Assembly: GCA_004963905.1 (NCBI GenBank)
Contig: SUGL01000002.1
Span: 246,280-310,279, forward strand
Direction: 5' to 3'
From: Mesorhizobium sp.
Lineage (GTDB): Bacteria > Pseudomonadota > Alphaproteobacteria > Rhizobiales > Rhizobiaceae
DNA length: 64,000 bases
A model generated the notes under the pieces. It made no database searches, had not been told where the DNA came from, and worked only from the letters and a program-made list of their open reading frames with translations. The position numbers were made by a program, and so were the translations under genes. Of this stretch, positions 2,786 through 19,764 are shown piece after piece (position 1 is the stretch's first letter; every line of letters starts with the position of its first letter).

Positions 2786-3691
2786 ATGGAGATGCAGCAG
2801 GTCCGCTATTTTCTGGCCCTGTCCAACACGCTGAATTTCACCAGAGCGGCAGAGGAATGCAACGTCACTCAGCCGGCGCTTACGCGCGCAATCAAGACGC
2901 TCGAAGAGGAACTGGGCGGAGAACTGCTTCGGCGGGAGCGGCAGCACTCGCATCTTACCGAACTTGGACGGCGCATGCTGCCGCTGCTGCAGCAGTGCTA
3001 TGACGCGGCTACATCCGCCAAATCACTGGCCAAGGCGGTTCAAAGCAGCGATGTGGCCCCTCTCAACGTGACGATCTCCAACAGTATCAACATCGCACTG
3101 TTGGTTTCGCCGTTCACGGAGCTTTTCCGGGCCTATCCCGGCGCGCATCTCAAAATCCACCGCGGCTCGCCAGCGGCTGTCATCGAGGCCCTCAAAAATG
3201 GTGAAGTCGAGCTGGCGGTTGCAGGCCCGCTGGACCAGGCTTGGGATCGTCTCGACACATGGCCACTTTTCCAGGAAGGAATCGAGCTCGCCGTGAATTC
3301 CGATCATCCGCTGGCCCGGCGCAACGAGGCCGATGTCGCTTTGGCTCAGCTTGCCGCGGAGCCCGTGCTTAGCCGGATCGACTGGGAGACCAGCGAGGAG
3401 CTGTCGCGCTCGCTATCCGCCAAAGGCTATTCGCCTCGAACCGCACATGAGGTCGAGACCGACCAGGATCTTCTCGCCTTGCTCGAGGCCAACGCCGGTG
3501 TCGGCTTCGTCTCGCTCACGTCACCGCGATCCTCCAACACTCGCCGGCTCAAGCTTCGTGATCTCGACGTTTCGCGGATCGTTTCCGTCTATGCGGTTGC
3601 CGGCAGGCAGCGCTCCCCTGTCGCGACGACTTTGCTCAACCTGTTGAGGTCGGCCGACTGGTCGTCCTTCGGCGTCAGCGAGCCCGCCTGA
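2786..3691 (+). CDS. LysR-family transcriptional regulator
   Basis: 301 residues with an N-terminal winged helix-turn-helix (MEMQQVRYFLAL, then NFTRAAEECNVTQPALTRAI) and a C-terminal periplasmic-binding-protein-like effector domain. The ATG at 2786 has GAGGGG nine bases upstream and starts exactly at the family's conserved N-terminus, so a longer reading from 2744 is rejected. It is divergent from the succinate-semialdehyde dehydrogenase gene and overlaps the convergent peroxiredoxin gene by 17 bases at the 3' end. It is one of three LysR proteins in the first 14 kb sharing the N-x-FTRAxExCNVTQPAL(T/S)RAI signature. Effector unknown. Confidence 0.9.
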   Translation: MEMQQVRYFLALSNTLNFTRAAEECNVTQPALTRAIKTLEEELGGELLRRERQHSHLTELGRRMLPLLQQCYDAATSAKSLAKAVQSSDVAPLNVTISNSINIALLVSPFTELFRAYPGAHLKIHRGSPAAVIEALKNGEVELAVAGPLDQAWDRLDTWPLFQEGIELAVNSDHPLARRNEADVALAQLAAEPVLSRIDWETSEELSRSLSAKGYSPRTAHEVETDQDLLALLEANAGVGFVSLTSPRSSNTRRLKLRDLDVSRIVSVYAVAGRQRSPVATTLLNLLRSADWSSFGVSEPA

Positions 3692-4379
3692 GCGCCGCGA
3701 TCATCTCATCAATGTCCATGCGACGGCGGTAGTCCGGATCGACGAAGCGATCAGTGATGATCCCGTCGGTCCCAACGATGAAGGTGGCTGGAATCGGCAG
3801 AAACCAGCTGCTGTTGCCCTGGTAGTTGGGGAGATCGAACCCCAGGCCCATCAGCCGCTCCATCTCGGCGCCGCCCCAGATCGCAAGGTTGAGCGATAAC
3901 GCATAGCCGTTGTCCATGTCGACCAGGAACGGGAACTGTGCCCCGACCAAAGCCTTCATGGCTTTGGCGAATTTGCGCCGCTCCGGCATGATCACGACGA
4001 CCTGTCCGCCCAGTTCCGCGATCTCGCGCTGCACCTCGACGATCCCGATGGCGTTCAAACGGCAATACGGGCACCAATGCCCGCGCTGAAAGGTGATGAC
4101 GGCTGGCCCCCTTTCCAGGATCTCGGCCAGGCTGACGAGCTTGCCATCGTCGTCAGGCAGCAGGAAACCAGGCATGGCTTCGCCCGCTGCCGGCGCCATA
4201 GTTCCGGCTCCCTGCTTCTCAAGGCGATCCACCAGTCGCTCTACAGCGTCCGCGAATTCGGAATTCATACGCCGGACCGCTGCGGCAATCACCGCCAGCC
4301 GCTCGTTCAGAGGCGCATCGAGCTCGATGGCTGCCTGGACGGATTGCTCGAATGTCATTGCCTGGTCGTCGGCGGCCAT
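3675..4379 (-). CDS. Peroxiredoxin-like (AhpC/TSA) thioredoxin-fold protein
   Basis: A thioredoxin-fold protein with about 80 N-terminal helical residues followed by an AhpC/TSA domain. The active-site segment is FQRGHWCPYCRLN, a CxxC rather than the single peroxidatic Cys of a typical 2-Cys Prx, as in many redoxin-family proteins of alphaproteobacteria. Probably cytoplasmic, since no signal peptide is visible. The start at 4379 (MAADDQAMTFEQ) is chosen because the residues before it look like untranslated leader; MTFEQ at 4358 is an alternative. The gene may act in peroxide or thiol redox homeostasis, which fits the nearby disulfide oxidoreductase operon, but substrate is unknown. Confidence 0.8.
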   Translation of the reverse strand: MAADDQAMTFEQSVQAAIELDAPLNERLAVIAAAVRRMNSEFADAVERLVDRLEKQGAGTMAPAAGEAMPGFLLPDDDGKLVSLAEILERGPAVITFQRGHWCPYCRLNAIGIVEVQREIAELGGQVVVIMPERRKFAKAMKALVGAQFPFLVDMDNGYALSLNLAIWGGAEMERLMGLGFDLPNYQGNSSWFLPIPATFIVGTDGIITDRFVDPDYRRRMDIDEMIAALRRAR

Positions 4380-4512
4380 GTCTGCACTTTCACACTTCGC
4401 ACACAGCCTACCACCGGAACCCCTCGGCAATTGCCATGTTTTTCCTGCATGGTTTCGATGCCCTGCGTGCATCGACGCGTGAAATCTTCTATTCGCCGGC
4501 CGGATCGACACG

Positions 4513-5859
4513 TTACATCATGTTCCTGATATCCGCCGAAAAAGTCGGGAAACCGTAGACCATCTCGGACAGAGCTCGCGCCGTGATGCCGTGTTTCATG
4601 GCAAGCGCGAAGATGTGGATCAGCTCTTCGCCGGCATGGCCCACCAGATGTGCTCCAACGATGCAATCCGTCGGCTCCTCGATAATTATCTTCGACCAGG
4701 CAACCGCCTCGGCATAGGTCCTGGCGGAGAGCCAGCCTTGCATGTCGTTGACGTGGACCTTGATGCGAAGACCCCGTTCTCTCGCCTTTGCTTCGGTCAG
4801 TCCGACGCTTGCCACGGCCGGAATGCTGTAGAGCGAGGCCGGGATGTGACTGTAGTCGGGCCGATGCTCCGGTCCGTCGACAATGTTGCGGCCGACAATC
4901 CCGCCCTCATAGGTCGCCACCGGCGAAAGCTGGGGGGAGCTCCACACCGCATCGCCACAGACATAGATATCGGGGTTGGAGCGTGAGCGCAGATGGTCGT
5001 CGATTTCGATGCGGCCTTCGCGATGCACGACGATACCGGCGCCAAGATCGAGGCCTTCGACATTGGCCACGCGCCCGGCGCAGTTGACGACCCGATCCGC
5101 CTCGACCAGGGATTCGACGCCGTCCTTCGCGAAGCTCACCCGCAGCCGCCCGCCGGCCTCTTCGACTTTCCTGACCCAAGCCTTGGTGTGGATGCCGATA
5201 CCGAGCCGCTCGCTCTCGCCGCGGAGCTGGGCAACGGCATCCGCGTCGAAGCCTCCGAGAAGTTGCGGCAGGGCCTCGAGGATCGTCACGTCGACGCCCG
5301 CGCGCGCATAGACATGCCCCAGCTCGAAAGCGATGACGCCGCCGCCGATGAACACCACCGCACGCGGCAGCACAGCAGCGCTCAGAACATCGTCGGAAGT
5401 CGTCAGATGCTCGGCGCCCGGGATCGGCAGCGGACGCGGCTTGGAGCCGGTGGCGATGACGATGTTCCTGGCCTCGAGTTCTCGGGCACCGACGCGGACG
5501 GCGTTGCTGCCGATAAATGTGGCCTCGCCGTGGATGACGTGGACGCCTCGCTTGGCCATCAATCCGGACAGTCGGGATGGGATATCCCTGATGATCTCCT
5601 TTTCCCGTTCGATCAAGGCTCGCCAATCGAGCCGCGGCTTATCGAGCGTGATTGCATGACTGCCGGCCCTGTCGATCTCGTCGAGCGCATGAGCCGCGGC
5701 GACCAGAACCTTCTTCGGCGTGCAGCCGCGATTGGGGCAGGTGCCGCCGAGGTCGCGCGCCTCTATCATGGCAACGGAAAGTCCGGCGGCGCGCGTCGCG
5801 ACCGTGACGCCCATTCCGGCATTGCCGCCGCCCAGGATCACGACGTCATACTTTTCCAT
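4513..5859 (-). CDS. FAD-dependent pyridine nucleotide-disulfide oxidoreductase
   Basis: 448 residues. An N-terminal FAD Rossmann motif (ILGGGNAGMG) is followed by the redox-active disulfide GGTCPNRGCTPKK (Cys41, Cys46), a second NAD(P)-binding Rossmann motif (FIGGGVIAFELG), the IYVCGDA FAD motif and a dimerisation domain. The C-terminal catalytic His-Pro pair of glutathione reductase and lipoamide dehydrogenase is replaced by Phe-Pro (YGFPTFSADI), so it is neither; its disulfide or other substrate is unknown. GGAGGGG precedes the ATG at 5859. It is the last gene of a minus-strand run, 17 bases after the NADH dehydrogenase gene. Confidence 0.85.
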   Translation of the reverse strand: MEKYDVVILGGGNAGMGVTVATRAAGLSVAMIEARDLGGTCPNRGCTPKKVLVAAAHALDEIDRAGSHAITLDKPRLDWRALIEREKEIIRDIPSRLSGLMAKRGVHVIHGEATFIGSNAVRVGARELEARNIVIATGSKPRPLPIPGAEHLTTSDDVLSAAVLPRAVVFIGGGVIAFELGHVYARAGVDVTILEALPQLLGGFDADAVAQLRGESERLGIGIHTKAWVRKVEEAGGRLRVSFAKDGVESLVEADRVVNCAGRVANVEGLDLGAGIVVHREGRIEIDDHLRSRSNPDIYVCGDAVWSSPQLSPVATYEGGIVGRNIVDGPEHRPDYSHIPASLYSIPAVASVGLTEAKARERGLRIKVHVNDMQGWLSARTYAEAVAWSKIIIEEPTDCIVGAHLVGHAGEELIHIFALAMKHGITARALSEMVYGFPTFSADIRNMM

Positions 5860-5876
5860 CGCACCCCTCCACTCTG

Positions 5877-7271
5877 CTAGTGAAGCTTGATCCGCGGCCT
5901 GGCGCGCCTGACGATCATCTCGCCGATCGACGCCAGAGTTGTCTTCGCCAGGCCATGCACTGCCTTGAGATGCATCTTGTGCAGCGAGCGATAGGCAAGC
6001 CTCGCAACGAGACCTTCGATCTTCAGTCCTCCGATCAGGCTGCCGAAGGCACCGTAGTCGGCGAGCGATACGAGGGAACCATAGTCGCGGTAGCGATACG
6101 CCGGCGCGGCCTGCCCCGCGAGACGTGCCGCAACCACCTTCGCCATGTGTTCTGCCTGCTGATGGGCTGTCTGGGCGCGCGGCGGCAAGGCGCTGTCTTC
6201 GCCCGGCAGGACGCAGTTCGCGCAGTCGCCAATCGCGAACACATTCTCGTCTCCGACGGCGCGCAAGGTTTCGTCCACGATCAGGCGGTTGATGCGATCT
6301 GTCTCGAGGCCATCGAGACCCTTGAGGAAATCCGGCGCCTTGATCCCGGCGGCCCAGACCACGAGTTCGGCCGGCACGAACAGCTTTTCGCCAAGCCGGA
6401 TGCCGTCTTCCGTGACTTCGGTGACCTTGATGCCGCATCGGATCTGCACACCCAGCTTGATGAGCAGGCGCGCCGAAGCATGGGCCATGTGCTCCGGAAG
6501 GGCGGGCAGAATGCGCGGGCCGGCCTCGACGATGGTGATGCGGATCAGCCTCTCGAAATCGATGTTGTCGAGATTGTGCGAGGCAATTTCGCGCATCGAT
6601 CTATGCAATTCCGCGGCCAGTTCGACACCGGTGGCTCCCGCGCCGACGATGACGCAATGGAGCTGGCCAGGCGCCAGCTGCTCATATTGCGCGTTGGCGC
6701 GCAGGCACGCGTCTATCATGCGCCTGTTGAAGCGAGCGGCCTGCTCCGCCGTGTCGAGCGAGATGGCGTGACGAGCCGCACCTGGCGTGCCGAAATCGTT
6801 GCTGACGCTGCCAACGGCCATAACCAGCGTGTCGTAGCCAAGAACGCGCGGCGGTATGATCTGCCTGCCGTCATCGTCGAAGCTGGGCGCGACGAAGATC
6901 TGGCGCTTTGCACGGTCGACGCCGACGACCTCGCCGATACGGTATCGATAGTGGTTGCGGCTGGCATGGGCGATGTATTCGACGGCGTCGTGCGACGCGC
7001 TCAGGGCGCCGGATGCCACCTCATGCAGCAGCGGCTTCCAGATATGGGTGCGGCTGCGGTCGACAAGCGTGACCGAAAGCCGACGGTTGCCGAATTTGCG
7101 GCCGAGACGTGTCGCGAGTTCCAGTCCGCCCGCGCCGCCACCGACGATGACCACGCGATGCAGAGACTTGTCCGCGTGCGAGGGAGTCTCCGGTATCGTG
7201 CGGAAAAGCGCGGCGTTGTTGGCAAGCACGGCTTCAGGAATGAGCCGCATGCCTGGAGTGATGATCTGCAT
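5877..7271 (-). CDS. ndh: Type II NADH dehydrogenase-like NAD(P)/FAD oxidoreductase
   Basis: 464 residues with two Rossmann motifs (VVIVGGGAGGLELATRLG near residue 41 and IVGAGATGVELAAELH) and the FAIGDCA FAD-binding motif, the architecture of non-proton-pumping NADH:quinone oxidoreductases (NDH-2). It would oxidise NADH at the inner face of the cytoplasmic membrane and pass electrons to quinone. The C-terminal part (YRSLHKMHLKAVHGL) resembles the amphipathic membrane-binding region. The start at 7271 has GGAGA six bases upstream. It lies in the bdhA-patatin operon, where re-oxidation of NADH made by 3-hydroxybutyrate dehydrogenase would be a sensible role (inference). Confidence 0.87.
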   Translation of the reverse strand: MQIITPGMRLIPEAVLANNAALFRTIPETPSHADKSLHRVVIVGGGAGGLELATRLGRKFGNRRLSVTLVDRSRTHIWKPLLHEVASGALSASHDAVEYIAHASRNHYRYRIGEVVGVDRAKRQIFVAPSFDDDGRQIIPPRVLGYDTLVMAVGSVSNDFGTPGAARHAISLDTAEQAARFNRRMIDACLRANAQYEQLAPGQLHCVIVGAGATGVELAAELHRSMREIASHNLDNIDFERLIRITIVEAGPRILPALPEHMAHASARLLIKLGVQIRCGIKVTEVTEDGIRLGEKLFVPAELVVWAAGIKAPDFLKGLDGLETDRINRLIVDETLRAVGDENVFAIGDCANCVLPGEDSALPPRAQTAHQQAEHMAKVVAARLAGQAAPAYRYRDYGSLVSLADYGAFGSLIGGLKIEGLVARLAYRSLHKMHLKAVHGLAKTTLASIGEMIVRRARPRIKLH

Positions 7272-7304: not shown

Positions 7305-8456
7305 TCACTCTTGCGATTCGTGGATCACGATGCCCTGCAGCATGTCGACTTCGCATTCCCACGGCTTTTGCGAGAGGACGCGCTGCCCATGCTCGTATCC
7401 AGCCTGCCAGCGGGTGCGGATGCCAGCGCGCGTGAAGTCGATGTCCTTGGTGTGATCCTCGCCGTCGAGGCGCGGCGAAAGCAGCCGAACGAGGTGCATG
7501 ACCGACGGGCAGCCATAGGAGGCGAGTTCCTTGAACATCGGATCGTCGCGCCGCTCCTCCGGGACGAGTTTTCCCATTTCGCGCACGACGTGCCTGAGCC
7601 GATGCAATTGCTCCTGGCGGGCGACGTGGCTTCTGCCACGGCTGGCGTATTGGAGATCCTTCTGCCGCCCCATGACCTGCCAGATCGATTTTGGCTCGGA
7701 GCCCCGCGGCTGCCACATGTTTACCGCGAAGATCAGCGCATCGCGGCGCGGTCGCGCGTCGAGCACGACCTCGATCGGGGTATTGGAATAGACCCCGCCG
7801 TCCCAATAGGGCTCGCCGTCGATGCAAACCGCCGGAAAGGCTGGCGGCAAGGCGCCCGATGCCATGATGTGGGCCGCCGACAGCGGCATCTGAGTGCTGT
7901 CGAAGTATCTGAGCTCACTGGTGTTGACGTTGACGGCGCCGACCGTCAATCGCGTATGGCGCCGGTTCAAACACTCGAAGTCGATAAGATCGTTCAGTGT
8001 CCTCTTGAGCGGGTCGGTGGTGTAGTAGGAGGCATTTTCCACGCCGACTTCGCGATTCACCCCGAACATGGCGCTCGGGTTCGGTTCGAAGAAGCCGGGT
8101 ATCCCGCGCATCACCGTGCCCATATTGGCGAAGATGTTGCTCGGAACCATCATCCGGAAGAACTCGTCGAGCGGGCTGCTTCGGCTGACGCCATCCCAGA
8201 ACTCCTGGAGCCTGGGCAAACGATCCTTAGGTTCGTTGCCGGCAATCAGCGCGGCATTGATGGCGCCAATCGATGTGCCGATGACCCAATCCGGTTCGAT
8301 GCCGCCTTCGACCAGCGCCTGGTAGACGCCGGCCTGGTAGGCGCCGAGCGCACCGCCGCCTTGAAGGACAAGCACGGTCTGACGTTTGACGTCGCCCTGG
8401 TGTCCGGTTGCCGCCTCTGCTCCTGGAACGGACAGGTTTTGCGTGATCTTGTTCAT
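7305..8456 (-). CDS. Patatin-like phospholipase/hydrolase
   Basis: 383 residues. All patatin catalytic elements are present: oxyanion-hole LQGGGALGAYQAG (near residue 33), nucleophile elbow G-T-S-I-G (Ser62) and the catalytic Asp in WDGGVYSNTP. The C-terminal third is the extension found in the DUF3734-type patatins that often sit next to 3-hydroxybutyrate dehydrogenase. Expected to hydrolyse acyl esters in lipids, or perhaps act in polyhydroxybutyrate granule turnover; the latter is inferred only from the neighbour bdhA, 22 bases upstream. The ATG at 8456 has GGAG upstream and the family's N-terminal length. Confidence 0.88.
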   Translation of the reverse strand: MNKITQNLSVPGAEAATGHQGDVKRQTVLVLQGGGALGAYQAGVYQALVEGGIEPDWVIGTSIGAINAALIAGNEPKDRLPRLQEFWDGVSRSSPLDEFFRMMVPSNIFANMGTVMRGIPGFFEPNPSAMFGVNREVGVENASYYTTDPLKRTLNDLIDFECLNRRHTRLTVGAVNVNTSELRYFDSTQMPLSAAHIMASGALPPAFPAVCIDGEPYWDGGVYSNTPIEVVLDARPRRDALIFAVNMWQPRGSEPKSIWQVMGRQKDLQYASRGRSHVARQEQLHRLRHVVREMGKLVPEERRDDPMFKELASYGCPSVMHLVRLLSPRLDGEDHTKDIDFTRAGIRTRWQAGYEHGQRVLSQKPWECEVDMLQGIVIHESQE

Positions 8457-8478
8457 GGCCTTCGCTCCTGGTGCAGGT

Positions 8479-9264
8479 CTAGTGGGCGGTCCAGCCGCCT
8501 TCGATCGGCATGATGGCGCCGGTGATCGAGGCCGCGTCGTCCGACGCCAGGAACAGGCAGAGCGCTGCGACCTGCTCGACGGTGACGAACTGCTTGGTAG
8601 GCTGGGCGGCGAGCAGCACATCCTTGATCACCTGCTGCTCGCTGATCCCGCGGGCCCTGGCCGTATCCGGGATCTGCTTTTCGACCAGCGGCGTGAGCAC
8701 GTAGCCGGGACAGACGGCATTGACCGTTATGCCCTGTTCGGCGACCTCGAGCGCGACCGTCTTGGTCAGGCCGGCCATGCCGTGCTTGGCGGCGACGTAG
8801 GCGGATTTGTATGGCGAGGCGACGAGGGCATGGGCGGACGCGACATTGATGATGCGGCCCCATTTGCGCGTCTTCATCGCCTGCAGAGCACGGCGGATCG
8901 TGTAGAAGGACGAGATGAGGTCGATCGCCACGACCGCTTCCCACTTCTCGATCGGGAAATCGTCGATCGGCGCGACATGCTGAATGCCGGCGTTGTTGAC
9001 CAGGATGTCGACCGCGCCGAATTCGGCGATGGCCTTGTCCATCATCGCGGTGATCGCCGCGCCTTTGCTCATGTCGGCATTGTCGTAGCGCACGGTCACC
9101 CCGTGGTCGGCGGCGAGCCTCGACCGAAGCAGCTCGATCTCGGCGGCATCGCCGAAACCGTTCAGAACGACGTTGCAGCCCTTGGCCGCGAAGGCCTCGG
9201 CGATGCCTTGGCCGATGCCGCTGGTCGAACCTGTGATGAGAGCCGTCTTTCCTGTGAGCATCAT
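8479..9264 (-). CDS. bdhA: 3-hydroxybutyrate dehydrogenase
   Basis: Classical short-chain dehydrogenase of 261 residues with TGSTSGIG (11-18) for NAD binding, NNAG (90-93) and the Ser143-Tyr156-Lys160 catalytic triad (YVAAK). The segment NNAGIQHVAPIDDFP and the end GGWTAH are typical of bacterial D-3-hydroxybutyrate dehydrogenases, which interconvert 3-hydroxybutyrate and acetoacetate in ketone-body and PHB catabolism. It is the first gene of the minus-strand series bdhA - patatin - ndh - disulfide oxidoreductase (gaps of 22, 33 and 17 bases) and is divergent from a LysR gene. Confidence 0.93.
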   Translation of the reverse strand: MMLTGKTALITGSTSGIGQGIAEAFAAKGCNVVLNGFGDAAEIELLRSRLAADHGVTVRYDNADMSKGAAITAMMDKAIAEFGAVDILVNNAGIQHVAPIDDFPIEKWEAVVAIDLISSFYTIRRALQAMKTRKWGRIINVASAHALVASPYKSAYVAAKHGMAGLTKTVALEVAEQGITVNAVCPGYVLTPLVEKQIPDTARARGISEQQVIKDVLLAAQPTKQFVTVEQVAALCLFLASDDAASITGAIMPIEGGWTAH

Positions 9265-9533
9265 CGTTTCCTTCTGTCGAAGCCGTGGCCGCAGTGACCT
9301 GCCACCGGTTGCGAACGACGGACGGCAAGCCCACCGTTCGTGGTCTCGCGATCAGTATGGCGAGCCTCCCGAAGCTGCGGAAATGCCGTTGAGACATGGA
9401 TTCGATAGCTGGCGGTGTGATCGCTGTGGCCACGAGGCAGCTCCGCAAGCCGGGTTGTTTGACCTAGGGGCAGCTAGTAAGATCGCCCGGCAACGCGGGC
9501 CGTGCGGCAAGCACGTTCCAGGGGAAGCGTGCA
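9265..9533. promoter_or_regulatory. Divergent bdhA/lysR promoter region
   Basis: A 269-base non-coding gap between bdhA and the LysR gene starting at 9534. No independent gene is visible. By arrangement it should hold the operon promoter and the LysR binding site; I could not pick a specific operator by eye. Confidence 0.4.
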
Positions 9534-10971: not shown

Positions 10972-11070
10972 CTCAGTCTCCGTTGGGTTCGGTGGTTGGC
11001 TAGTGCATCGAGATTCTTGCGCGATCTCGCCAGAGGCGGATGGCCTCATGGCCGATCGCTTTTCCGATCG

Positions 11071-12273: not shown

Positions 12274-12362
12274 CACAGGCTCCTGGCCAGCGTCCTCAGG
12301 CGATCGCCCGAGGACGCACTGTTGGTTGCTGCTGCTGGGATCCGCTGGCCGCGACGAGCGGC

Positions 12363-12863
12363 TCACATCATGTGATCGTCGTGCATTGCCGGCGGCAGAA
12401 CGTCGGCTGAGTAGAGCACGGCCGGAACCTTGCCGTTGTTCTTCCACCAGTGGGCGAGCTGGCCGAACTCGGCGGTCACGTCGCCGGCCGCATGCTCGAT
12501 GCCGACCTTGCAGGTGCTGGCGTATTCGGTGATCGAGCCTTCGACGACGATGATGTTGGCGGGACGAACCGTGTGCTCATGCCACGGCACGACGCCGCCC
12601 GGCTGAACGACGAGCTTGCGCAGACGCAGCATGTTGCCCTTCCAGGCTTCGCCCTTGGGGCTGAGGTCGATCGCCGAAAGAACCGTGTCCGTCACGCCGA
12701 CGGGCTTGCTGGGATGTTCCTGGATGTCGGTGGTGGCGGCCTGGCCGGCAGGGCAGTCGCCGGCGAAAACCGGGGCCACCGAAAACGCGGCGGTCGCGGT
12801 GAGAAGTCCGAGTGTCAGCGCCAGCTTCAGCGGCACCCGCAATGCAATAGTCCTGGAAGCCAT
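12363..12863 (-). CDS. Secreted cupin-domain protein
   Basis: 166 residues with a signal peptide (LALTLGLLTATAAFSVAPVFAG) and a single cupin fold: the first metal-binding motif is visible as GGVVPWHEHTVRPANIIVVEG, the second is weaker (GDVTAEFGQLAHWWKN). The end is His/Met-rich (PPAMHDDHMM). A periplasmic metal-binding protein or enzyme is plausible, but no substrate can be assigned. GGAGAAATAGAC precedes the ATG at 12863. First gene of a possible cupin - MFS - DUF302 operon. Confidence 0.82.
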   Translation of the reverse strand: MASRTIALRVPLKLALTLGLLTATAAFSVAPVFAGDCPAGQAATTDIQEHPSKPVGVTDTVLSAIDLSPKGEAWKGNMLRLRKLVVQPGGVVPWHEHTVRPANIIVVEGSITEYASTCKVGIEHAAGDVTAEFGQLAHWWKNNGKVPAVLYSADVLPPAMHDDHMM

Positions 12864-13050
12864 GTCTATTTCTCCTTTGTCGGTGCCCAATCGCGGAAGC
12901 GGGGCATAGGAGGAGAGTGACGGCAGCCTCGAGGAAAGAGAAATGCTGACTGGCTCTTAATTCGATACCTGAAAACTATGGTGCATGGCCAGCACCAGCG
13001 CGGCTATCCAGCTACGACATTTGTCGCAGCGTTCGGCTCCACTTCGAAAT

Positions 13051-13158
13051 GCTAAAGCGCGTCGCGATCTTTCAGATACGCTCCATGCGCTTTAGCTTTT
13101 TGATTTTACGCATGTCTTTGTCCCGAAACCGGTTCCCACTTTCGGGAGACATGCTTTA
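13051..13158. repeat. Palindromic intergenic repeat, copy 1
   Basis: Two inverted-repeat modules. The first pairs GCTAAAGCGC (13051-13060) with GCGCTTTAGC (13087-13096). The second runs from CATGTCT (13111) to AGACATG (13153) with the internal pair CCCGAAA/TTTCGGG and the core ACCGGTTCCCACTTT. The same core recurs at 21648, 24089, 24662 and 25045. It reaches the stop codon of the minus-strand LysR gene. Confidence 0.75.
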
Positions 13159-14070
13159 AGCAGCGCTCTTCCTGGCCGACAGGTCGATACCGCTCTCCGG
13201 CCAGCTGTGCGCCTTGACGCTGTTCACGAAGGTCGATGTCGCCGGCGAGAAGCGGCGCCCGGCCACCACGACGAGCGAGACTTCGCGCCAGACCTCGGGA
13301 TCGACGACGGGCCTGATTTGCAGACCTGGGATGACGGCGCTGAATTCCGGGATGAAGCAGATTCCCAGCCCGCCTGAGACCATGTTTTGAATCCAGTCTT
13401 CGCGTTCGCTGGCGTAGGAAATCCTGAGCTTCACGCCACGTTCGTTGCAGAGGCCGGCGAGGTAATCCCGATACTCGCAATTCAGGCGTCTCAGATAGTT
13501 CTCGCCGTCGAGCTCGGAGATGGCAACATTGTCGTTGCGGGCCAGCCGATGGCCGTTGGGAAAGGCAAGCACGAACCGTTCGCGATAGAGCGGGGTGACG
13601 TCGAAGCGCTCCGGAAAACTGTTGCTGGACGCCATGATGGCGACATCGATCTCACCGGCTTCCAGCAGCTGCGAAAGCGAAGCCGGCACGCCCTCAACAA
13701 GCTGCAGCTGAATGCCTTGCTGGCGCCTGTTGAAGTCGGTCAACAGGCCGGTAAATCGCCGCGGACCGATCGTGCACATGACCCCAACCTTGAGATTTGC
13801 ATTCTCCAGGCAGAGAAACCTCGACGCTTCCTGACGCACGCCGGTCACCTCGTCGAGGATCTGCTGGAACCGGGGGCGCAGCAACGCGCCCAGATCGGTG
13901 AGATGGGTCAGGTTCCGCTCGCGGCGGAACAGCAAGCCGCCGACCTCATCCTCGAGCTGCTGGATCGCGCGGGATAGCGCGGGCTGGGTGACGTTGCACT
14001 TTTCGCCCGCGCGCGTGAAATTGCGGGTCTCGCAGACGGCCAGGAAGTAGCGGATGTGATGGATGTCCAT
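13156..14070 (-). CDS. LysR-family transcriptional regulator
   Basis: 304 residues with the same N-terminal HTH signature as the two earlier LysR proteins (IRYFLAVCETRNFTRAGE, CNVTQPALSRAI) and a C-terminal effector domain. AGAGGGACG lies upstream of the ATG at 14070. It is separated from its neighbours by about 160 bases of non-coding sequence and its target is not obvious; candidates are the cupin operon downstream and the small secreted-protein genes upstream. The stop codon lies at the edge of a palindromic repeat. Confidence 0.9.
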   Translation of the reverse strand: MDIHHIRYFLAVCETRNFTRAGEKCNVTQPALSRAIQQLEDEVGGLLFRRERNLTHLTDLGALLRPRFQQILDEVTGVRQEASRFLCLENANLKVGVMCTIGPRRFTGLLTDFNRRQQGIQLQLVEGVPASLSQLLEAGEIDVAIMASSNSFPERFDVTPLYRERFVLAFPNGHRLARNDNVAISELDGENYLRRLNCEYRDYLAGLCNERGVKLRISYASEREDWIQNMVSGGLGICFIPEFSAVIPGLQIRPVVDPEVWREVSLVVVAGRRFSPATSTFVNSVKAHSWPESGIDLSARKSAA

Positions 14071-14179
14071 GCGGGGCGTCCCTCTCTAGCATAGGTGCAC
14101 GCTGGAACCCTGCCGCATGGCACTCCATCGCGCCAATGCATGAGCGCTATAAAGTCGATAGCGTTTCGTCATGCGACGA

Positions 14180-14198
14180 AGGCGGGCCGAGGCCCGCC
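14180..14198. repeat. GC-rich hairpin between small secreted-protein and lysR genes
   Basis: GGCGGGCC and GGCCCGCC form a perfect stem with a two-base spacer. It lies just past the stop of the minus-strand small protein gene at 14235, where a terminator would be, but no clear U-run follows on either strand. It could stabilise an mRNA 3' end or terminate weakly. Confidence 0.4.
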
Positions 14199-14234
14199 AT
14201 CAAAAACATTCTGCAGTGCCGGGCGCCGAGAATG

Positions 14235-14510
14235 TCAGCTGTGATGGCCCAAGGCGAAAAGCCGGGCGCAGAATTGAGCATGCGGCTTGCTCATGGCGGC
14301 GTCGTTGCATTCCTTCATCATCGAAACCTGCATCGCCTTCGGCGTGGCTTTCCATGCCATCTCGAAGTCGGCGCTCGACTTCATCGTCTTCATGCCGGAA
14401 TCGGTGAAGAAGGGCTGCATGTTGGACGGTTCGTCGAGGACTCCGGCGGACGCCACCCCGCCAATAACCGAAAGGGCAAAAGCGCCAAAGCAGATAGCTT
14501 TGATATTCAT
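14235..14510 (-). CDS. Small secreted protein of unknown function (paralogue A)
   Basis: 91 residues with a signal peptide (AICFGAFALSVIGGVASAG). The mature part carries FFTDSGMKTMKS, FEMAWKATPK, MMKECNDAAMSKPHAQFCA. Nearly the same pattern occurs in the protein encoded at 14698-14976, so the two are clearly paralogues, including two cysteines 13 positions apart with a His between. I do not recognise the family. Conserved Cys, His and Met suggest a disulfide or metal site (inference). The bufferin operon begins 1.8 kb away on the other strand. Confidence 0.72.
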   Translation of the reverse strand: MNIKAICFGAFALSVIGGVASAGVLDEPSNMQPFFTDSGMKTMKSSADFEMAWKATPKAMQVSMMKECNDAAMSKPHAQFCARLFALGHHS

Positions 14511-14697
14511 GGTGAGAACCTTCTCTGGAATTGCGCAATCGCCCTTTTGACGACTGCGCTGATGACTGGCGGCTTTTGGAACTTTATTGTTCCCGCTTGC
14601 CGAGGTGGACTTTGCTTCATCCGGCGCTCAACTCGCCAATGCCGTCTACGAATGGAGTTTATGCCGCCCTGTATTCCAAAGGGCTCGGCGAGCACCG

Positions 14698-14976
14698 CTA
14701 ATTGGCTCCATCCAAAGCAAGCACGTTGGCGCAGAATTGGGCGTGGGGCTTGCTCATCGCCGGGTCGTTGCACGCCTTCGTCATCTTGACGCGATCGTGC
14801 TTCGGCATGGCGAACCAGGCCTTCTTGAACCCAGCCATAGGTTTCATCGTCTTCATCACGGAGTCCGTGTAGAACGTCGGCAATGCAGCGAGATCGCTGA
14901 ACGGGTCGGCTGAAGCGGGGCTCGCGCCAAGACCAATTGCAAGCGCAGCCACACAGGCCAATTGTCTTTTCATCAT
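14698..14976 (-). CDS. Small secreted protein of unknown function (paralogue B)
   Basis: 92 residues (91 if the second of two adjacent ATGs is used), preceded by AGGAGACGG. A signal peptide ends near ASPASA. The mature region has FYTDSVMKTMKP, FKKAWFAMPK and KACNDPAMSKPHAQFCA, lining up without gaps over much of paralogue A. It lies upstream of paralogue A on the same strand with a 187-base gap, so cotranscription is possible. It is divergent from the degenerate patatin-like gene at 15193. Function unknown. Confidence 0.75.
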   Translation of the reverse strand: MMKRQLACVAALAIGLGASPASADPFSDLAALPTFYTDSVMKTMKPMAGFKKAWFAMPKHDRVKMTKACNDPAMSKPHAQFCANVLALDGAN

Positions 14977-15192
14977 CCGTCTCCTGTTCCCGGCCGCGGT
15001 TCTGGCAGCGGCTCCAACCAAGCGATGCGCATCGCCTGGCCTGATCGGGATGAAGAGTGCGGCGCGCGAGGACCGGCAGCCAATGCAATCTGCCTATGGA
15101 CTTCATGCCACCTCGGCATTTCGGCTGAACAAGAAGATGCGGCAGTCTCTCTCCAGTCGTCCCGGTGACGATCTTGGGAGGGAGACCAGACC

Positions 15193-16050
15193 ATGCTTAC
15201 CCAGCCCGCAATGAGAACAGACCAAGCCATCGCGTCAGTCGCTAATCTTGGTGCGGAAGACCGGACGATCGACATCGTGCTGGCAAACGATGCACATGGC
15301 GCTTTCGTCTGGGGTGTGCTCGATCGCCTGCTGGACGAGCCGAGCTGCAGCGTCAGCGGCGTCACCGCGTCGGGCTTTGCAGCGATGGAGGCGGCGGTCT
15401 TCGCCTATGGCTTGAGCGTCGGCGGCAGGCGCGGCGCGCGGACGGCACTCGCCAATTTCTGGCGGCGCGTCTGCCACGCCAGTGTTTTCGCCGATGACAG
15501 GGCCAGCCTGCTTCGATCGGTCGTGGAACAGTCAATCGATATCGAGCAAATCCGCGTCGAACGTAGCCCGGTGAAACTTTGCGTCCAGACCGTTAACGCC
15601 CGCACTGACGCCGTGAAGGTTTTCACCGGCAGTCAGTTGTCGATCGACGCGATCATCGCGGCGGCCACGATCCCCTTCCTCTCGCTGCCTGTCGAGATCG
15701 ACGGCGACATCTATTGGGGTGACGGCGACGTCTTCCAGGCTCCGCCTGTCCTGGCAACTGAAGCTCGCCATCGCCTGATCGTCACCGGCAGACCGTCCGT
15801 GTTCACCACACCGTGTCCGGACCGCAGCACCGCCGCCGATCATTGCTTGACCAAATGCGCGCCCGTCCACACCATATTCGACAGTCGATACCGTGCCGGA
15901 GCCCCGCTGCTTCTGCGGCCCTGGATCGACTGGGGCGAGCTGACCGAGATGCGCGACAGGGGGCGGCAGCGCGCGGCGGACTGGCTTGCCGCCGATCCTT
16001 TCCGCGCTGATGAAACCCCGGCCTCCAACTGCGAAAGACGATATATCTAG
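15193..16050 (+). CDS. Patatin-like protein with degenerate active site
   Basis: 285 residues that follow the patatin fold order but with broken motifs. The oxyanion hole that should be GGG-x-x-G reads LANDAHGAFVWG. The nucleophile elbow G-x-S-x-G reads T-A-S-G-F. The catalytic Asp motif DGG reads WGDGDVFQAPP. Hydrolase activity is doubtful; it may be a pseudoenzyme or bind a ligand. GGGAGGGAGACC precedes the ATG at 15193. It lies between the paralogous small secreted proteins and the bufferin operon and is followed by a strong terminator. Confidence 0.65.
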   Translation: MLTQPAMRTDQAIASVANLGAEDRTIDIVLANDAHGAFVWGVLDRLLDEPSCSVSGVTASGFAAMEAAVFAYGLSVGGRRGARTALANFWRRVCHASVFADDRASLLRSVVEQSIDIEQIRVERSPVKLCVQTVNARTDAVKVFTGSQLSIDAIIAAATIPFLSLPVEIDGDIYWGDGDVFQAPPVLATEARHRLIVTGRPSVFTTPCPDRSTAADHCLTKCAPVHTIFDSRYRAGAPLLLRPWIDWGELTEMRDRGRQRAADWLAADPFRADETPASNCERRYI

Positions 16051-16107
16051 GCGCCTCGCTCCCCGCCTAGCCGCGCCTGCTTCGCATACTCCCGAATGCA
16101 GGCGCCA

Positions 16108-16138
16108 AGCCCTCCGGTTCCCCGCCGGAGGGCTTTTT
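16108..16138 (+). terminator. Rho-independent terminator
   Basis: AGCCCTCCGG and CCGGAGGGCT form a ten-base stem around a seven-base loop, followed by a run of T on the plus strand. It closes the patatin-like gene and separates it from the bufferin operon. Confidence 0.85.
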
Positions 16139-16284
16139 CGCGCCGAGCCACAGAACATAGTGGCAGCGTATCAATTCCATGCCGAGACAGCATTTCAGCT
16201 CGGCATCGCGATCGGAGAGACTGATTTTGCAGACAGGCCCGAAGGCCGGTCTTTCTCTCGAAACGCCAACCAGGAGACAAGCCT

Positions 16285-16554
16285 GTGATCAACACCAAGA
16301 CCCTCATCGGATCGGCCCTCGCGGCCGCCACTTCGCTTGCCGCGACAGCGGCCTACAGCGGCCCCGCCGCCAAGCCCAGCTTCGCCTTCGAGAAGTGCTA
16401 CGGCGTGGTCAAGGCGGGCCAGAACGACTGCCAGACCGCGACGCATTCCTGCGCCGGCACCGCGACCGCCGACAACCAGCCGGATTCCTGGCTTTACGTG
16501 CCCGCCGGCAGCTGCGCCAAGATCGCGGGCGGCAGCGACAAGCCGAAAGCCTGA
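16285..16554 (+). CDS. bufA: Bufferin-type RiPP precursor (DUF2282)
   Basis: 89 residues: a signal peptide ([20 protein letters not shown]) followed by a core with four cysteines, Cys38 (EKCYG), Cys49 (NDC), Cys56 (HSCAG) and Cys77 (GSC). This is the DUF2282/BufA1 pattern. In characterised bufferins, the MNIO enzyme converts core cysteines to thiooxazoles, giving a periplasmic copper-binding peptide. The GTG at 16285 has AGGAGACAAG upstream. It heads the operon bufA - bufB - bufC - doxX. Modification in this organism is inferred. Confidence 0.88.
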
Positions 16555-16598
16555 GTAAATCCCGACTTCCGACCAGCGCAATAGAATGGAGGAGACCG

Positions 16599-17624
16599 AT
16601 GTCCCGTGCGTTTCAGCCTCTTGCGATCCCCGCATCGGCGGGCATCGGTCTTCGCTCGCCTCACATCAGCGAAATGCTGACCAGGCGGCCTTCCGCCGGC
16701 TGGCTGGAGGTTCATGCCGAGAACTACATGGGGGACGGCGCCGGCGTCGAGGCGCTGGAAAAACTTCGCGAGATCTATCCGCTTTCGGTGCATGGCGTCG
16801 GCCTGTCGCTCGGCAGCGCGCGAGGCTTGGACCGCGATCATCTGGAGCGGCTGCGCAAGGTCTGCGAGCGCTTCCAGCCCGATCTCGTTTCCGAGCATCT
16901 GGCCTGGAGCGTCGCCGACGGCGCCTATCTCAACGATCTCTTACCGCTGCGCTATGACGAAGAAGCGCTGGCGATCGTCGCGCGCAACGTCGAAACCGTC
17001 CAGGAAACGTTGAAGCGGCAGGTGCTGATCGAAAATCTGTCTGCCTATGTCGCGTTTGCGGACTCCTCGATGAACGAGGCCGAGTTCCTGACCGAGCTCG
17101 TGATGCAGACCGGCTGCGGCCTGCTGCTGGACGTCAACAATGTCCAGGTCTCGGCGCACAATTTGCAATATGACGCGAGGGCCTTCATCGATGCGCTGCC
17201 CGCGGGCGCGATCGGCGAGATCCATCTTGCCGGTCATGCCACCAATAGGGTCGGGGCCGACACGGTGCTCATCGACGACCATGGCTCTCGCGTTCCACCG
17301 GTCGTTTGGGCTCTCTATGAGCACGCCATAACCTGCCTCGGGCCGCGACCCACGCTGATCGAATGGGACACCGACGTTCCGGTTCTCGATGTGCTGCTTG
17401 GCGAAGCCATGTGGGCCGACATGCTCACCGCTTCGATCATGTTCAGCCGCAAGCAGGCTGCGAGACAGGCCGCGGCAGCCAAGCCCCGTCCCGTATCCCC
17501 TACCCCCTTTGAAAACGTGCGGACCAGCATGCCTGTGCTTGCAGCATTTGCTGCCGCCAAGGCCGGGCCTGTCATGTCGAACGCTTTGACGCCGATGGAG
17601 GGAAGATACGATGTTGCCGCTTGA
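16599..17624 (+). CDS. bufB: Bufferin maturase, DUF692/MNIO-family iron enzyme
   Basis: 341 residues with the TIM-barrel DUF692 fold of multinuclear non-heme iron oxidative enzymes. Candidate metal-ligand segments are visible in order: VHGVGLS (His65), IENLSAY (Glu145), LLDVNNV (Asp178) and SAHN (His187), EIHLAGH (His209, His213), DDHG (His228) and LIEWD (Glu255). It should oxidise cysteines of BufA into oxazole-type rings together with BufC. About 60 Ala/Pro-rich residues follow the barrel, longer than many homologues. GGAGGAGACC precedes the ATG at 16599; the 3' end overlaps bufC by 14 bases. Confidence 0.92.
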   Translation: MSRAFQPLAIPASAGIGLRSPHISEMLTRRPSAGWLEVHAENYMGDGAGVEALEKLREIYPLSVHGVGLSLGSARGLDRDHLERLRKVCERFQPDLVSEHLAWSVADGAYLNDLLPLRYDEEALAIVARNVETVQETLKRQVLIENLSAYVAFADSSMNEAEFLTELVMQTGCGLLLDVNNVQVSAHNLQYDARAFIDALPAGAIGEIHLAGHATNRVGADTVLIDDHGSRVPPVVWALYEHAITCLGPRPTLIEWDTDVPVLDVLLGEAMWADMLTASIMFSRKQAARQAAAAKPRPVSPTPFENVRTSMPVLAAFAAAKAGPVMSNALTPMEGRYDVAA

Positions 17625-18396
17625 ACACCTGCAGACCGCCATGGCGCGCTCGGTGCTTGCCGCCGAACCAATGGTCTTCGCGAAAATGCTGACCGCCGGC
17701 AAGGCCGATCCACTGGCCCGCCTGCGCATCTACCAGAACAATACGCGCAGCTCGCTCACCGCGGTGCTGATGGCGGTCTTTCCGGTTACCGTTCGCCTGG
17801 TGGACGAACGGTTCTTCCGCTATGCGGCGAGCGAGTTCATTCGACGCCATCCGCCGGTTGAATCGCGCCTTGCGCGCTATGGCGCCGGCTTCCCGCGCTT
17901 CCTCAAGACGATCGACACGCTGTCCGACATGCCGATCGTCGCCGAAACGGCGCGGCTCGAATGGGCCATCGCCGAGGCGCTCGATACGGCTTCGCTGCCG
18001 GCCCGCGGCCTCGCAGAATACGACGACACCGACCTCGGGCTCTCGCCGGATATCCTGCTCCAGCCCTCGCTGCGCCTGATCGTCTCGCATTGGTCGATCC
18101 TGTCGGTATGGATGGCGCATCAACAGGAGACGGCGGTCGACGAAACCGTAACCTGGATAAGGCGCCCCGAACGCGTGGCGTTGTGGCGATCGGGGAACTA
18201 CGTGCGGCTTTTTCTGCTCGACCGCGCGAGCTTCGCCTTCTGGCATTCGCTGAAGCATGGTTTCGGCCTCGAGCATGCCACTGGTCGTGCCTTGGTGCTC
18301 GACCCGGCCTTCGACCTGGTTTCGGCCCTTGTGCGTCTGTTCCGCGACAGGCTCATCACCGACGTGCGGGTCGCCTCGAATTCCCCCTCAAACTGA
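17611..18396 (+). CDS. bufC: Bufferin maturation partner, DUF2063 (HvfC/BufC)
   Basis: 261 residues beginning with the DUF2063 DNA-binding-like domain pattern (RLRIYQNNTRSSLTAVLMAVFPV, typical R-x-x-IYxxN motif), followed by a C-terminal domain rich in Leu and Arg. BufC/HvfC partners bind the precursor leader and present it to the MNIO enzyme. It starts inside the end of bufB, which implies translational coupling, and is followed by doxX after 11 bases. No membrane segment or signal peptide is seen. Confidence 0.88.
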   Translation: MLPLEHLQTAMARSVLAAEPMVFAKMLTAGKADPLARLRIYQNNTRSSLTAVLMAVFPVTVRLVDERFFRYAASEFIRRHPPVESRLARYGAGFPRFLKTIDTLSDMPIVAETARLEWAIAEALDTASLPARGLAEYDDTDLGLSPDILLQPSLRLIVSHWSILSVWMAHQQETAVDETVTWIRRPERVALWRSGNYVRLFLLDRASFAFWHSLKHGFGLEHATGRALVLDPAFDLVSALVRLFRDRLITDVRVASNSPSN

Positions 18397-18407
18397 CGGA
18401 GACGGTC

Positions 18408-18884
18408 ATGACCGCAATATCGGAGCATTCCTCGTCCAACCCGGCCGGCTTTGTCGGCCTCTACAAGCGTATCATCAAGCTGCCCGAGCACATTCCATTC
18501 TCGCTGGTTCAACTCGCTGCCCGTGTGGCGGTGGCCCATGTGTTCTGGCAGTCCGCCCAAAGTAAGCTGGCATCCTGGCCGGTCACGTTGCAGCTCTTCG
18601 CCGACGAATACAATCTGCCGTTCATCGACCCGTCGATCGCGGCGCCGTTGGCGACAACCGCCGAAATCACCGGCTCGGTGCTGCTTTTCTTTGGGGCCTT
18701 CTCGCGTCTCGGCGCGCTGATGCTGATTGGCGTGGTCTCCGTCATCCAGATCTTCGTCTATCCGGAGAACTGGGCGGAGCATCTGCTGTGGGCGTCGCTG
18801 CTGCTTCTGGTGCTGGCACGCGGCGCCGGTGTCTTCTCGCTCGACTATGTCGCCGAGCGAGCCCTTTCGGCATCCAGAAAATGA
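18408..18884 (+). CDS. DoxX-family membrane protein of the bufferin operon
   Basis: 158 residues with about four transmembrane segments, starting at an ATG with GGAGAC just upstream. It has DoxX features: LVQLAARVAVAHVFWQSAQSKL at the first helix and EITGSVLLFFGAFSRLGAL near the second. DoxX proteins are regular last genes of bufferin and related (hvfX) operons; the role there, perhaps electron transfer or secretion-linked redox chemistry, is not settled. Gap to bufC is 11 bases. Confidence 0.87.
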   Translation: MTAISEHSSSNPAGFVGLYKRIIKLPEHIPFSLVQLAARVAVAHVFWQSAQSKLASWPVTLQLFADEYNLPFIDPSIAAPLATTAEITGSVLLFFGAFSRLGALMLIGVVSVIQIFVYPENWAEHLLWASLLLLVLARGAGVFSLDYVAERALSASRK

Positions 18885-18911
18885 ACATTCCGTCCGGGTG
18901 GGAAAAGCGCG

Positions 18912-19619
18912 GTGCGCATCTTCATCGTTCACGCACACCCCGAGCCCAACAGCTTCAATGGCGCCCTGACCCGCGCCGCGCAGGAGGCGTTGTTCACGGC
19001 GGGACATGAGGTCGTCGTCTCCGATCTCTACGCCATGGGCTTCAATCCGGTATCAAATCGCCGCAACTTTACGACCGTGCACGATGCGAACTACTACCGC
19101 CAGCAGGCCGAGGAGGCGAATGCGGCTGCCCATGACGGGTTTGCTCCAGACATCCAGGCGGAGATGGACAAGCTTTTCTGGTGCGATGCGTTGATCCTGC
19201 AGTTTCCGCTCTGGTGGTTCGGGCTGCCGGCGATCCTCAAGGGCTGGGTCGACCGCGTGTTCGCATCAGGTGGCCGCATTTATGGCGGCGGCAAATGGTA
19301 TGACCGCGGCGTCTTCTCCGGAAAGCGTGCGATGTGCTCCGTCACGATCGGCGGACCGCCGCCGATCTACTCCGATCGAGGCCTGAACGGCCCGATCGCC
19401 GAGATCCTGTTCCCGATCAACCACGGCATGCTCTACTTTGTCGGCTTCACGGTGATCGAGCCATTTCTGGTGCACGCACCAGCACGCATCGGCGACGATG
19501 AGCGCCGGATGTGCCTCGATCGCTACCGCGAACGCGTCCTCAGCCTCGCTCATGCTCCGACGATTGCGTATCCGAAGCTGGCGGAGTTCGACGATATGCA
19601 TGTTTTGAAGTCGACGTGA
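18912..19619 (+). CDS. NAD(P)H-quinone oxidoreductase, flavodoxin-like fold
   Basis: 235 residues of the NQO1/MdaB/KefF flavodoxin-like family: IVHAHPEPNSFNGAL binds the FMN/FAD phosphate, and FPLWWFGLPAILKGWVDRV is the hallmark central motif. It would perform two-electron reduction of quinones or similar compounds in the cytoplasm. The start is a GTG at 18912, 27 bases after doxX, so cotranscription with the bufferin operon is likely. Whether it serves copper-related redox stress is inference. Confidence 0.88.
   Translation: MRIFIVHAHPEPNSFNGALTRAAQEALFTAGHEVVVSDLYAMGFNPVSNRRNFTTVHDANYYRQQAEEANAAAHDGFAPDIQAEMDKLFWCDALILQFPLWWFGLPAILKGWVDRVFASGGRIYGGGKWYDRGVFSGKRAMCSVTIGGPPPIYSDRGLNGPIAEILFPINHGMLYFVGFTVIEPFLVHAPARIGDDERRMCLDRYRERVLSLAHAPTIAYPKLAEFDDMHVLKST

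Positions 19620-19689: not shown

Positions 19690-19764
<75 letters not shown>

What the first reader, a model, noticed from the sequence alone, without database searches (positions are those of the whole stretch)
16285..19619. Bufferin-type RiPP operon with a quinone reductase appended
The gene order DUF2282 precursor (Cys38, 49, 56, 77), DUF692 MNIO enzyme, DUF2063 partner and DoxX protein is the hallmark of bufferin biosynthesis, established for copper-binding oxazole-modified peptides. The genes overlap or lie 11-44 bases apart. The NAD(P)H-quinone reductase 27 bases downstream is not a standard member, and the MNIO enzyme has an extra ~60-residue Ala/Pro-rich tail. Both could point to a variant system.
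Basis: partly seen in the sequence, partly recalled or inferred. Interest (0 to 1): 0.75.

Follow-up and report, generated by a model that had tools for sequence, protein, structure and literature searches.

The report
LysR-wired bufferin operon in rhizobia
A soil rhizobium carries genes for a copper-binding peptide (a bufferin) that appear to be switched together with storage-lipid and redox enzymes by one linked regulator; the extra quinone reductase is a late, often lost, add-on.

Summary
bufA-bufB-bufC-doxX-NQO lie at 16285-19619 with the stated spacings and cysteines, and bufB passes the curated MNIO_BufB cut-off. The BufB tail (about 45 residues, not 60) marks one clade: 336-344 aa in 74 of 79 rows, against 288-299 aa in 58 other Buf1 loci. 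The reductase is NQO1-like and seen only in core Mesorhizobium, where it is intact in 22, broken in 12 and absent in 16 of 50 loci.

What sets this system apart is larger. A LysR gene and a secreted-looking cupin gene accompany the operon in Mesorhizobium, Sinorhizobium, Rhizobium and Taklimakanibacter. A 27-base LysR-type box (strict pattern) occurs exactly three times in the 7.06-Mb genome, all in this locus: before bufA, before a patatin-like gene, and before a 3-hydroxybutyrate dehydrogenase operon that also encodes a patatin and an NDH-2-like flavoprotein. In Sinorhizobium and Rhizobium an NDH-2-type NADH:quinone reductase directly follows doxX. I read it as a Buf1 bufferin placed under LysR control together with NAD(P)H/quinone redox genes. 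LysR binding, peptide modification and copper binding are untested. New variant of a known kind.

The parts
16285..16554 (+). bufA, Buf1 (DUF2282) bufferin precursor, Cys38/49/56/77
16599..17624 (+). bufB, MNIO enzyme (maturase), 341 aa
17481..17621 (+). clade-specific C-terminal tail of BufB (about residues 295-341)
   Evidence: lengths; dN/dS; low pLDDT
17611..18396 (+). bufC, DUF2063 + RRE-type partner protein
   Evidence: AlphaFold model and PDB matches to the TglHI structures and NGO1945
18408..18884 (+). doxX
18912..19619 (+). NQO1-like NAD(P)H:quinone reductase, accessory
16169..16195 (+). LysR-type box (T-N11-A), 116 bases before bufA
15095..15121 (+). LysR-type box before the patatin-like gene
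9381..9407 (-). LysR-type box before the hydroxybutyrate dehydrogenase operon
13156..14070 (-). LysR regulator linked to this locus; Cys99, 198 and 238 invariant in 74 of 74 clade rows (some rows duplicate one another)
12363..12890 (-). secreted-looking cupin-like protein (Pfam Cupin_2 E 4.2e-6, just below its cut-off), conserved beside the LysR
15193..16050 (+). patatin-like protein that has lost its catalytic residues in core Mesorhizobium
16107..16135 (+). terminator-like hairpin between the patatin-like gene and bufA
   Evidence: z -5.57; aligned
8479..9264 (-). 3-hydroxybutyrate dehydrogenase (TIGR01963, 371.8 bits, cut-off 307)
7305..8621 (-). patatin + DUF3734 protein with intact catalytic motifs (true start probably near 8456)
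5877..7271 (-). NDH-2-like flavoprotein
4513..5862 (-). pyridine nucleotide-disulfide reductase of the glutathione/mercuric reductase kind (start approximate); found in 29 of 38 core loci
3675..4511 (-). redoxin (AhpC/TSA type); not surveyed in other loci
14235..14510 (-). small secreted-looking protein, paralogue 1, function unknown
14698..15021 (-). small secreted-looking protein, paralogue 2, function unknown

Best explanation
This is a Buf1 bufferin operon belonging to a distinct rhizobial clade in which a linked LysR regulator controls it together with a redox and storage-lipid gene set. Proposed working: (1) the LysR protein binds boxes before bufA, before the patatin-like gene and before the hydroxybutyrate dehydrogenase operon, and switches them together (inferred from sequence). 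(2) BufA is made, BufB with BufC converts its two middle cysteines into thiooxazoles, and the exported peptide holds copper in the periplasm (inferred from the family). (3) DoxX works beside NAD(P)H-fed flavoprotein reductases: NDH-2 behind doxX in Sinorhizobium and Rhizobium; an NDH-2-like protein in the left operon plus an optional NQO1-like enzyme in Mesorhizobium. These, fed by NADH from 3-hydroxybutyrate oxidation, would keep quinones, thiols or the iron cofactor reduced during copper or oxidant stress (speculative). The NQO1-like gene is a later, dispensable addition.
For: Family. Regulator linkage: a search with the LysR protein kept the best 80 of 272 relatives (77 loci); of the 68 at 63% identity or more, 65 hold bufB, and in the other three the contig ends within 3 kb on the side where the operon usually lies. 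Within the genus the LysR ortholog (E <= 1e-100) is in 51 of 146 genomes: 50 of the 51 with the clade's bufB, and G240, whose operon is broken by a contig end; G232 has the operon without it. Box: 3 strict matches in the 7.06-Mb genome, all in this locus, reversed control 0. In the genus 53 of 146 genomes match, 52 of them buf-clade genomes (G240 included), and the reversed pattern matches none of 146. Across 10 representative clade loci the box is 85% identical against 55-58% in its flanks (the box was noticed in this same alignment). In Sinorhizobium/Rhizobium-type loci the boxes lie about 100 bases before the dehydrogenase gene and about 110 before bufA. Reductases: NDH-2 behind doxX in 29 of 30 non-core clade rows (two of the 29 are one record; the 30th, L193, is a short contig). 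Left operon: dehydrogenase, patatin and NDH-2-like genes in 38 of 38 named core loci with flank, box in 37. The MNIO relative HvfBC needs a reductant, and a mixed-valent diiron state correlates with its activity (passages of PMC13419390).
Against: No binding, expression, modification or copper data. The genus co-occurrence figures are not corrected for shared descent. The NQO1-like gene is broken or absent in 28 of 50 core loci, so that enzyme is not needed. The NDH-2-like protein of the left operon is only 32% identical to the one behind doxX in S. meliloti, so they may not do the same job. The disulfide reductase of the left operon is found in 29 of 38 core loci only. The other 58 Buf1 loci lack this set, so it is not part of bufferin making in general. 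NCBIfam scores of BufA, BufC and DoxX are below their cut-offs. L136 (and L184, the same locus) and L192 miss the box at bufA under the pattern used; nine LysR relatives below 50% identity have no bufB.
Confidence: 0.6

Rival explanations
1. An ordinary Buf1 copper-buffering operon whose neighbours are bystanders: LysR, cupin, patatin and dehydrogenase travel with it as one inherited or transferred block, and the box is an operator for bufA alone or a relic.
For: Core bufABC-doxX order is the published standard. Genes at the locus move as blocks and linkage can be passive. In core Mesorhizobium the patatin-like protein has lost its catalytic residues in 48 of 48 full-length sequences, and the reductase decays.
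Against: The same box sits before the dehydrogenase gene in most Sinorhizobium/Rhizobium-type loci and also before the separate dehydrogenase operon of Mesorhizobium. Linkage survives rearrangement in S. kostiense (L179), L176 and L256. LysR dN/dS is 0.028, the lowest of the eight genes measured.
Confidence: 0.25
2. The appended NQO1-like reductase is a required dedicated partner of BufBC or DoxX in this lineage, so the system makes a differently modified product.
For: 27 bases behind doxX, no promoter-like site found; where intact it is under purifying selection (dN/dS 0.11, 22 sequences); every listed match of 85% identity or more in the genus lies beside a buf operon, one of them cut by a contig end.
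Against: Broken in 12 and absent in 16 of 50 core loci, where doxX and, with few exceptions, an intact bufABC remain; parsimony counts 13 changes intact/lost on the tree, at least 4 forced by well-supported branches; not seen outside the core.
Confidence: 0.1
3. The LysR senses something other than copper, such as 3-hydroxybutyrate, quinones or reactive chlorine, and the peptide's main role here is thiol or electrophile protection.
For: The window's left operon also encodes a disulfide reductase and a redoxin; LysR relatives of 48-49% identity in two other alphaproteobacterial loci lie near the same disulfide reductase (55-58%) without bufB (L206, L207); three invariant cysteines in the LysR.
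Against: No inducer data; the disulfide reductase is missing from 9 of 38 core loci; the Buf1 family is experimentally tied to copper (PMC12452194, sections read).
Confidence: 0.3

Closest known systems
Buf1 bufferin BGC (DUF2282; PMC12452194)
   Same: bufA-bufB-bufC-doxX order, four Cys, signal-like N-terminus, DUF2063 partner with RRE fold.
   Different: LysR and LysR-type boxes instead of the sigma factor/NrsF genes described there; BufB tail; cupin, dehydrogenase, patatin and quinone-reductase genes attached.
Captophorins, fontiphorin and oxazolin pathways (PMC13097082, PMC13419390)
   Same: MNIO plus PME1 partner; thiooxazole copper peptides.
   Different: DUF2282 precursor rather than EGKCG repeats; no redox gene set of this kind noted in the text parts read (abstract, one quarter of the results, passages).
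NQO1/NQO2-type quinone reductases (4gi5, 1d4a)
   Same: Sequence match over most of the protein (E 1e-50 to 1e-43).
   Different: Operon-linked to doxX; activity untested.
Thiol-sensing LysR regulators OxyR and LsrB of Rhizobiales (PMC11975290)
   Same: LysR type with conserved cysteines in the effector domain.
   Different: Accessory gene (51 of 146 genomes), tied to one locus; redox sensing untested.

Membership tests
Buf1 bufferin | DUF2282 precursor with four conserved Cys | tested here: met
   NCBIfam BufA2 model matched only below its cut-off
Buf1 bufferin | MNIO enzyme of the BufB type | tested here: met
   NF050167 364 bits, cut-off 310; fold match to 3bww
Buf1 bufferin | Partner with DUF2063 and RRE-type domain | tested here: met
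   model pLDDT 86, best matches 8hci_A, 8hi7_A and 3dee; NCBIfam HvfC below cut-off
Buf1 bufferin | Gene order bufABC-doxX | tested here: met
Buf1 bufferin | Sec signal peptide on the precursor | tested here: inconclusive
   N-terminus looks like one by eye; no predictor was available
Buf1 bufferin | Thiooxazole at the middle Cys; copper binding | not testable with these tools
   needs mass spectrometry and metal assays
Sigma factor/NrsF-controlled Buf1 BGC | ECF sigma and NrsF genes beside the operon | tested here: not met
   none among the 20 window ORFs of 3675-19619 scanned; in other Buf1 loci the third ORF after bufB is an ECF sigma factor in 10 of 49
LysR-regulated operon | Conserved LysR-type box (T-N11-A, rule recalled) before the target, linked LysR gene | tested here: met
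   binding not tested
NQO1-like quinone reductase | Flavodoxin-like fold family and close NQO1/NQO2 match | tested here: met
   NCBIfam equivalogs only below cut-off; activity not testable

The most novel reading that the evidence does not exclude
A thiol-sensing LysR drives an electron-supply line for a bufferin: hydroxybutyrate oxidation gives NADH, a quinone reductase (NDH-2, or an NQO1-like enzyme in some lineages) passes it to quinone, and DoxX uses the quinol to keep the maturase iron or the exported thiooxazole peptide in its Cu(I)-binding state.
Probability: 0.2. Interest if true: 0.85.

Novelty: new variant of a known kind. Interest (0 to 1): 0.6.

Why it matters
The role of DoxX and the electron source for these enzymes are open. 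A clade in which quinone reductases and an NADH-making enzyme appear wired to the bufferin operon by one regulator makes both testable in harmless rhizobia. It also suggests a second mode of bufferin control besides sigma factors, and offers natural gene losses that show which parts are optional.

Tried and rejected
Considered and dropped: (a) the reductase as a required partner: broken or absent in 28 of 50 core loci (with the window and G240 counted in). (b) The reductase as a straight replacement of NDH-2: an NDH-2-like gene is present in the left operon of core Mesorhizobium, so 'replacement' is too strong. (c) G240 as a case of reductase without bufferin: the contig ends inside bufC (L137). 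(d) The longer tail as a catalytic domain: low pLDDT and fast evolution. (e) A PDB sequence search for the patatin-like protein of the window gave nothing; its relative in S. meliloti is a Pfam Patatin. (f) Integration at tRNA-Thr as the cause of reductase loss: a tRNA-Thr gene lies in 13 of 48 fetched loci scanned; left open. (g) Literature: searches listed nothing on the link; only listings were seen, apart from passages of PMC10315480, PMC4417242 and PMC11975290, which do not mention it; other listed papers, such as PMC8719888, were not opened.

Results against: the box at bufA is missing under the pattern used in L136, its duplicate L184 and L192; a box in G296 without the LysR or the clade's bufB, and a stray one in G335; no dehydrogenase box in L156; no patatin-like-gene box in L107, L123 and the contig-cut L108; 9 of 38 core loci without the disulfide reductase. 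Of the 58 other Buf1 loci four have some LysR at 25-44% identity (L254, L255, L270, L273), L230 and L231 a weak (26-28%) NDH-2-like match on the opposite strand, and L223 a ferredoxin-reductase-like flavoprotein behind doxX; some of those contigs are short.

Rows dropped before counts: one search left out bufB copies that ran off a contig or aligned over under 240 residues, and ten loci as duplicate or same-genome records (L174, L175, L184-L187, L199, L201, L204, L205); the tree further left out bufB under 300 aa and all but 8 of the 58 outgroup rows; dN/dS used only coding sequences over 90% of full length. The 58 comparison loci were top hits of searches, not a random draw. On rechecking I corrected a first count that had the disulfide reductase in all 38 loci (a wrong ORF start; now 29 of 38).
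Full report
Observation. Pfam and NCBIfam identify DUF2282, MNIO (MNIO_BufB above its cut-off), DUF2063, DoxX and a Flavodoxin_2 protein. The genome has one MNIO match. The four BufA cysteines are invariant in 29 of 29 aligned proteins from the clade and from other Buf1 loci. AlphaFold models: BufC (pLDDT 86) matches the TglHI structures and NGO1945 best, so the DUF2063 plus RRE layout holds; BufB (pLDDT 85) matches the DUF692 protein 3bww best. By the family description in PMC12452194 (sections 4, 13, 14 and 18 read), the two middle cysteines would be modified and the outer two form a disulfide.

The tail. BufB is 336-344 aa in 74 of 79 clade rows; the others are two rows of one Taklimakanibacter record (317) and three odd copies of 243, 251 and 365 aa (L130, L193, L090). 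In 58 other Buf1 loci it is 288-299 aa. The extra stretch is about 45 residues, is predicted with low confidence, and evolves faster than the core (dN/dS 0.34 against 0.074). It is a clade mark with no evident function.

The reductase. It is NQO1/NQO2-like. Among 50 core Mesorhizobium loci (48 fetched by their bufB, the window, and the contig-broken G240) it is intact in 22, broken in 12 and absent, by tblastn, in 16; in one of the 16 (L098) only 473 bases after doxX are held. On a BufB tree the core clade has 98% SH-aLRT support; intact/lost needs 13 changes, and well-supported branches force at least 4 for the intact state. Intact copies are under purifying selection (0.113). No copy of this kind is seen in clade loci outside the core.

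The larger unit. Aligning neighbours showed that a LysR gene and a cupin-like gene stay with the operon across genera. To avoid choosing loci by bufB, I searched named genomes with the LysR protein: of 272 relatives the best 80 were kept, giving 77 loci, 68 at 63% identity or more and 9 below 50%. Of the 68, 65 contain bufB; in the three others the contig ends within 3 kb on the usual side. Three of the 68 are contigs of one S. terangae assembly and two are from one Mesorhizobium MAG, so they are not all independent. None of the 9 distant ones has bufB. In Sinorhizobium/Ensifer, Rhizobium and Taklimakanibacter the order is cupin-lysR, then 3-hydroxybutyrate dehydrogenase, patatin, bufABC, doxX, NDH-2 and, where identified further, an adenylate/guanylate cyclase; in L176, L179 and L256 the operon lies on the other side of cupin-lysR. 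NDH-2 is present behind doxX in 29 of 30 non-core clade rows (two are one record; the 30th, L193, is a short contig). For the S. meliloti copy the best PDB match is a non-electrogenic NADH:ubiquinone reductase, E 1.8e-106. In 58 other Buf1 loci there is no cupin, patatin or NDH-2 of this kind (some contigs are short); the third ORF after bufB there is an ECF sigma factor in 10 of 49 scanned.

The box. The stretch between the patatin-like gene and bufA holds a terminator-like hairpin (16107-16135; fold z -5.57; missed by the scan) and a conserved box with ATGC-N7-GCAT, the T-N11-A form of LysR sites (the rule is recalled). With the pattern TAT-N7-AT-N9-GCATTT it occurs before bufA in 56 of the 57 loci L080-L136 and in the window, before the patatin-like gene in 45 of 48 fetched core loci and the window, and between lysR and the dehydrogenase gene in most Sinorhizobium/Rhizobium-type loci; shuffles of four loci gave none. 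A stricter pattern matches exactly three times in the whole genome, all here. In 146 genomes of the genus it matches in 53, of which 52 carry the clade's operon (G240 included), and its reversed control matches none; 147 matches in all by my sum of the table, two of them (G296, G335) outside the locus, one more (G277:C25) assigned by its letters only. Box identity across 10 representative clade loci is 0.85 against 0.58 and 0.55 in its flanks, measured on the alignment in which the box was noticed. The third site led to a second operon at 3675-9264 on the minus strand: 3-hydroxybutyrate dehydrogenase (TIGR01963 above cut-off), patatin with DUF3734, NDH-2-like flavoprotein, disulfide reductase, redoxin. 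The first three genes are present in 38 of 38 named core loci with flank, with a box in 37; the disulfide reductase is found in 29 of the 38; the redoxin was not surveyed. The LysR ortholog (E <= 1e-100) is in 51 of 146 genomes of the genus: 50 of the 51 with the clade's bufB, plus the contig-broken G240. The Fisher values ignore shared descent. Azospirillum brasilense has a LysR of 47% identity divergent to a DUF2282 operon, with a match to the looser pattern between them, so LysR control may be wider than this clade.

Mechanism. Shown by sequence: the linkage, the boxes, the family memberships. Inferred: LysR binding and joint control. Speculative: that the NADH-making dehydrogenase and the quinone reductases feed DoxX or the maturase. 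Support for a need of reductant comes from the HvfBC work, where a reductant is required and a mixed-valent diiron state correlates with activity (passages of PMC13419390). Three cysteines of the LysR are invariant in 74 of 74 clade rows, some of them duplicates; OxyR and LsrB are thiol-sensing LysR proteins of Agrobacterium (abstract start and passages of PMC11975290).

Decay in core Mesorhizobium. The patatin-like protein beside bufA has lost the GGGxxG loop, the serine and the aspartate motif in 48 of 48 full-length core sequences, while 9 of 9 outside keep them; a second patatin with intact motifs lies in the left operon.

Novelty. In the main text of PMC12452194 the words LysR, cupin and quinone do not occur, nor LysR, cupin or reductase in that of PMC13097082; full-text searches listed no paper on such a link. 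The library lacks most subscription papers and supplements were not read.

Noticed in passing
window 14235-14510 and 14698-15021, minus strand: Two paralogous small secreted-looking proteins with a shared FYTDS-MKTMK...CND-AMSKPHAQFC motif and no family match, present in most core Mesorhizobium loci in the place where the dehydrogenase gene lies in other genera.
   Followed up: partly
window 15193-16050: Patatin-like protein with all three catalytic motifs lost in 48 of 48 full-length core sequences yet kept, with its own LysR-type box.
   Followed up: partly
window 12363-12890: Cupin-like protein with a signal-like N-terminus and a Met/His-rich C-terminus (PPAMHDDHMM) that could bind metal; seen by eye.
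   Followed up: no
L223:3518-4879: In another Buf1 locus a ferredoxin-reductase-type flavoprotein directly follows doxX: a third kind of reductase in that place.
   Followed up: partly
L206, L207: LysR relatives (48-49%) lie near the same disulfide reductase (55-58%) as in the window's left operon, with no bufB in the stretch held.
   Followed up: partly
L279:3508-4934: Azospirillum brasilense plasmid: LysR (47%) divergent to a DUF2282 operon with a similar box between them.
   Followed up: partly
window 19690-19764: tRNA-Thr just behind the reductase; 6 of the 12 broken reductases are cut on the 3' side that faces this place, as if insertions at the tRNA had eroded the gene.
   Followed up: partly
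window 2744-3691: By eye, a second LysR-type ORF next to the redoxin gene, with an aldehyde-dehydrogenase-like ORF beyond it.
   Followed up: no
G287 (L082, L108; contig C110): One genome carries two copies of the locus; by its contig length it is a MAG, so mixing of strains is possible.
   Followed up: no
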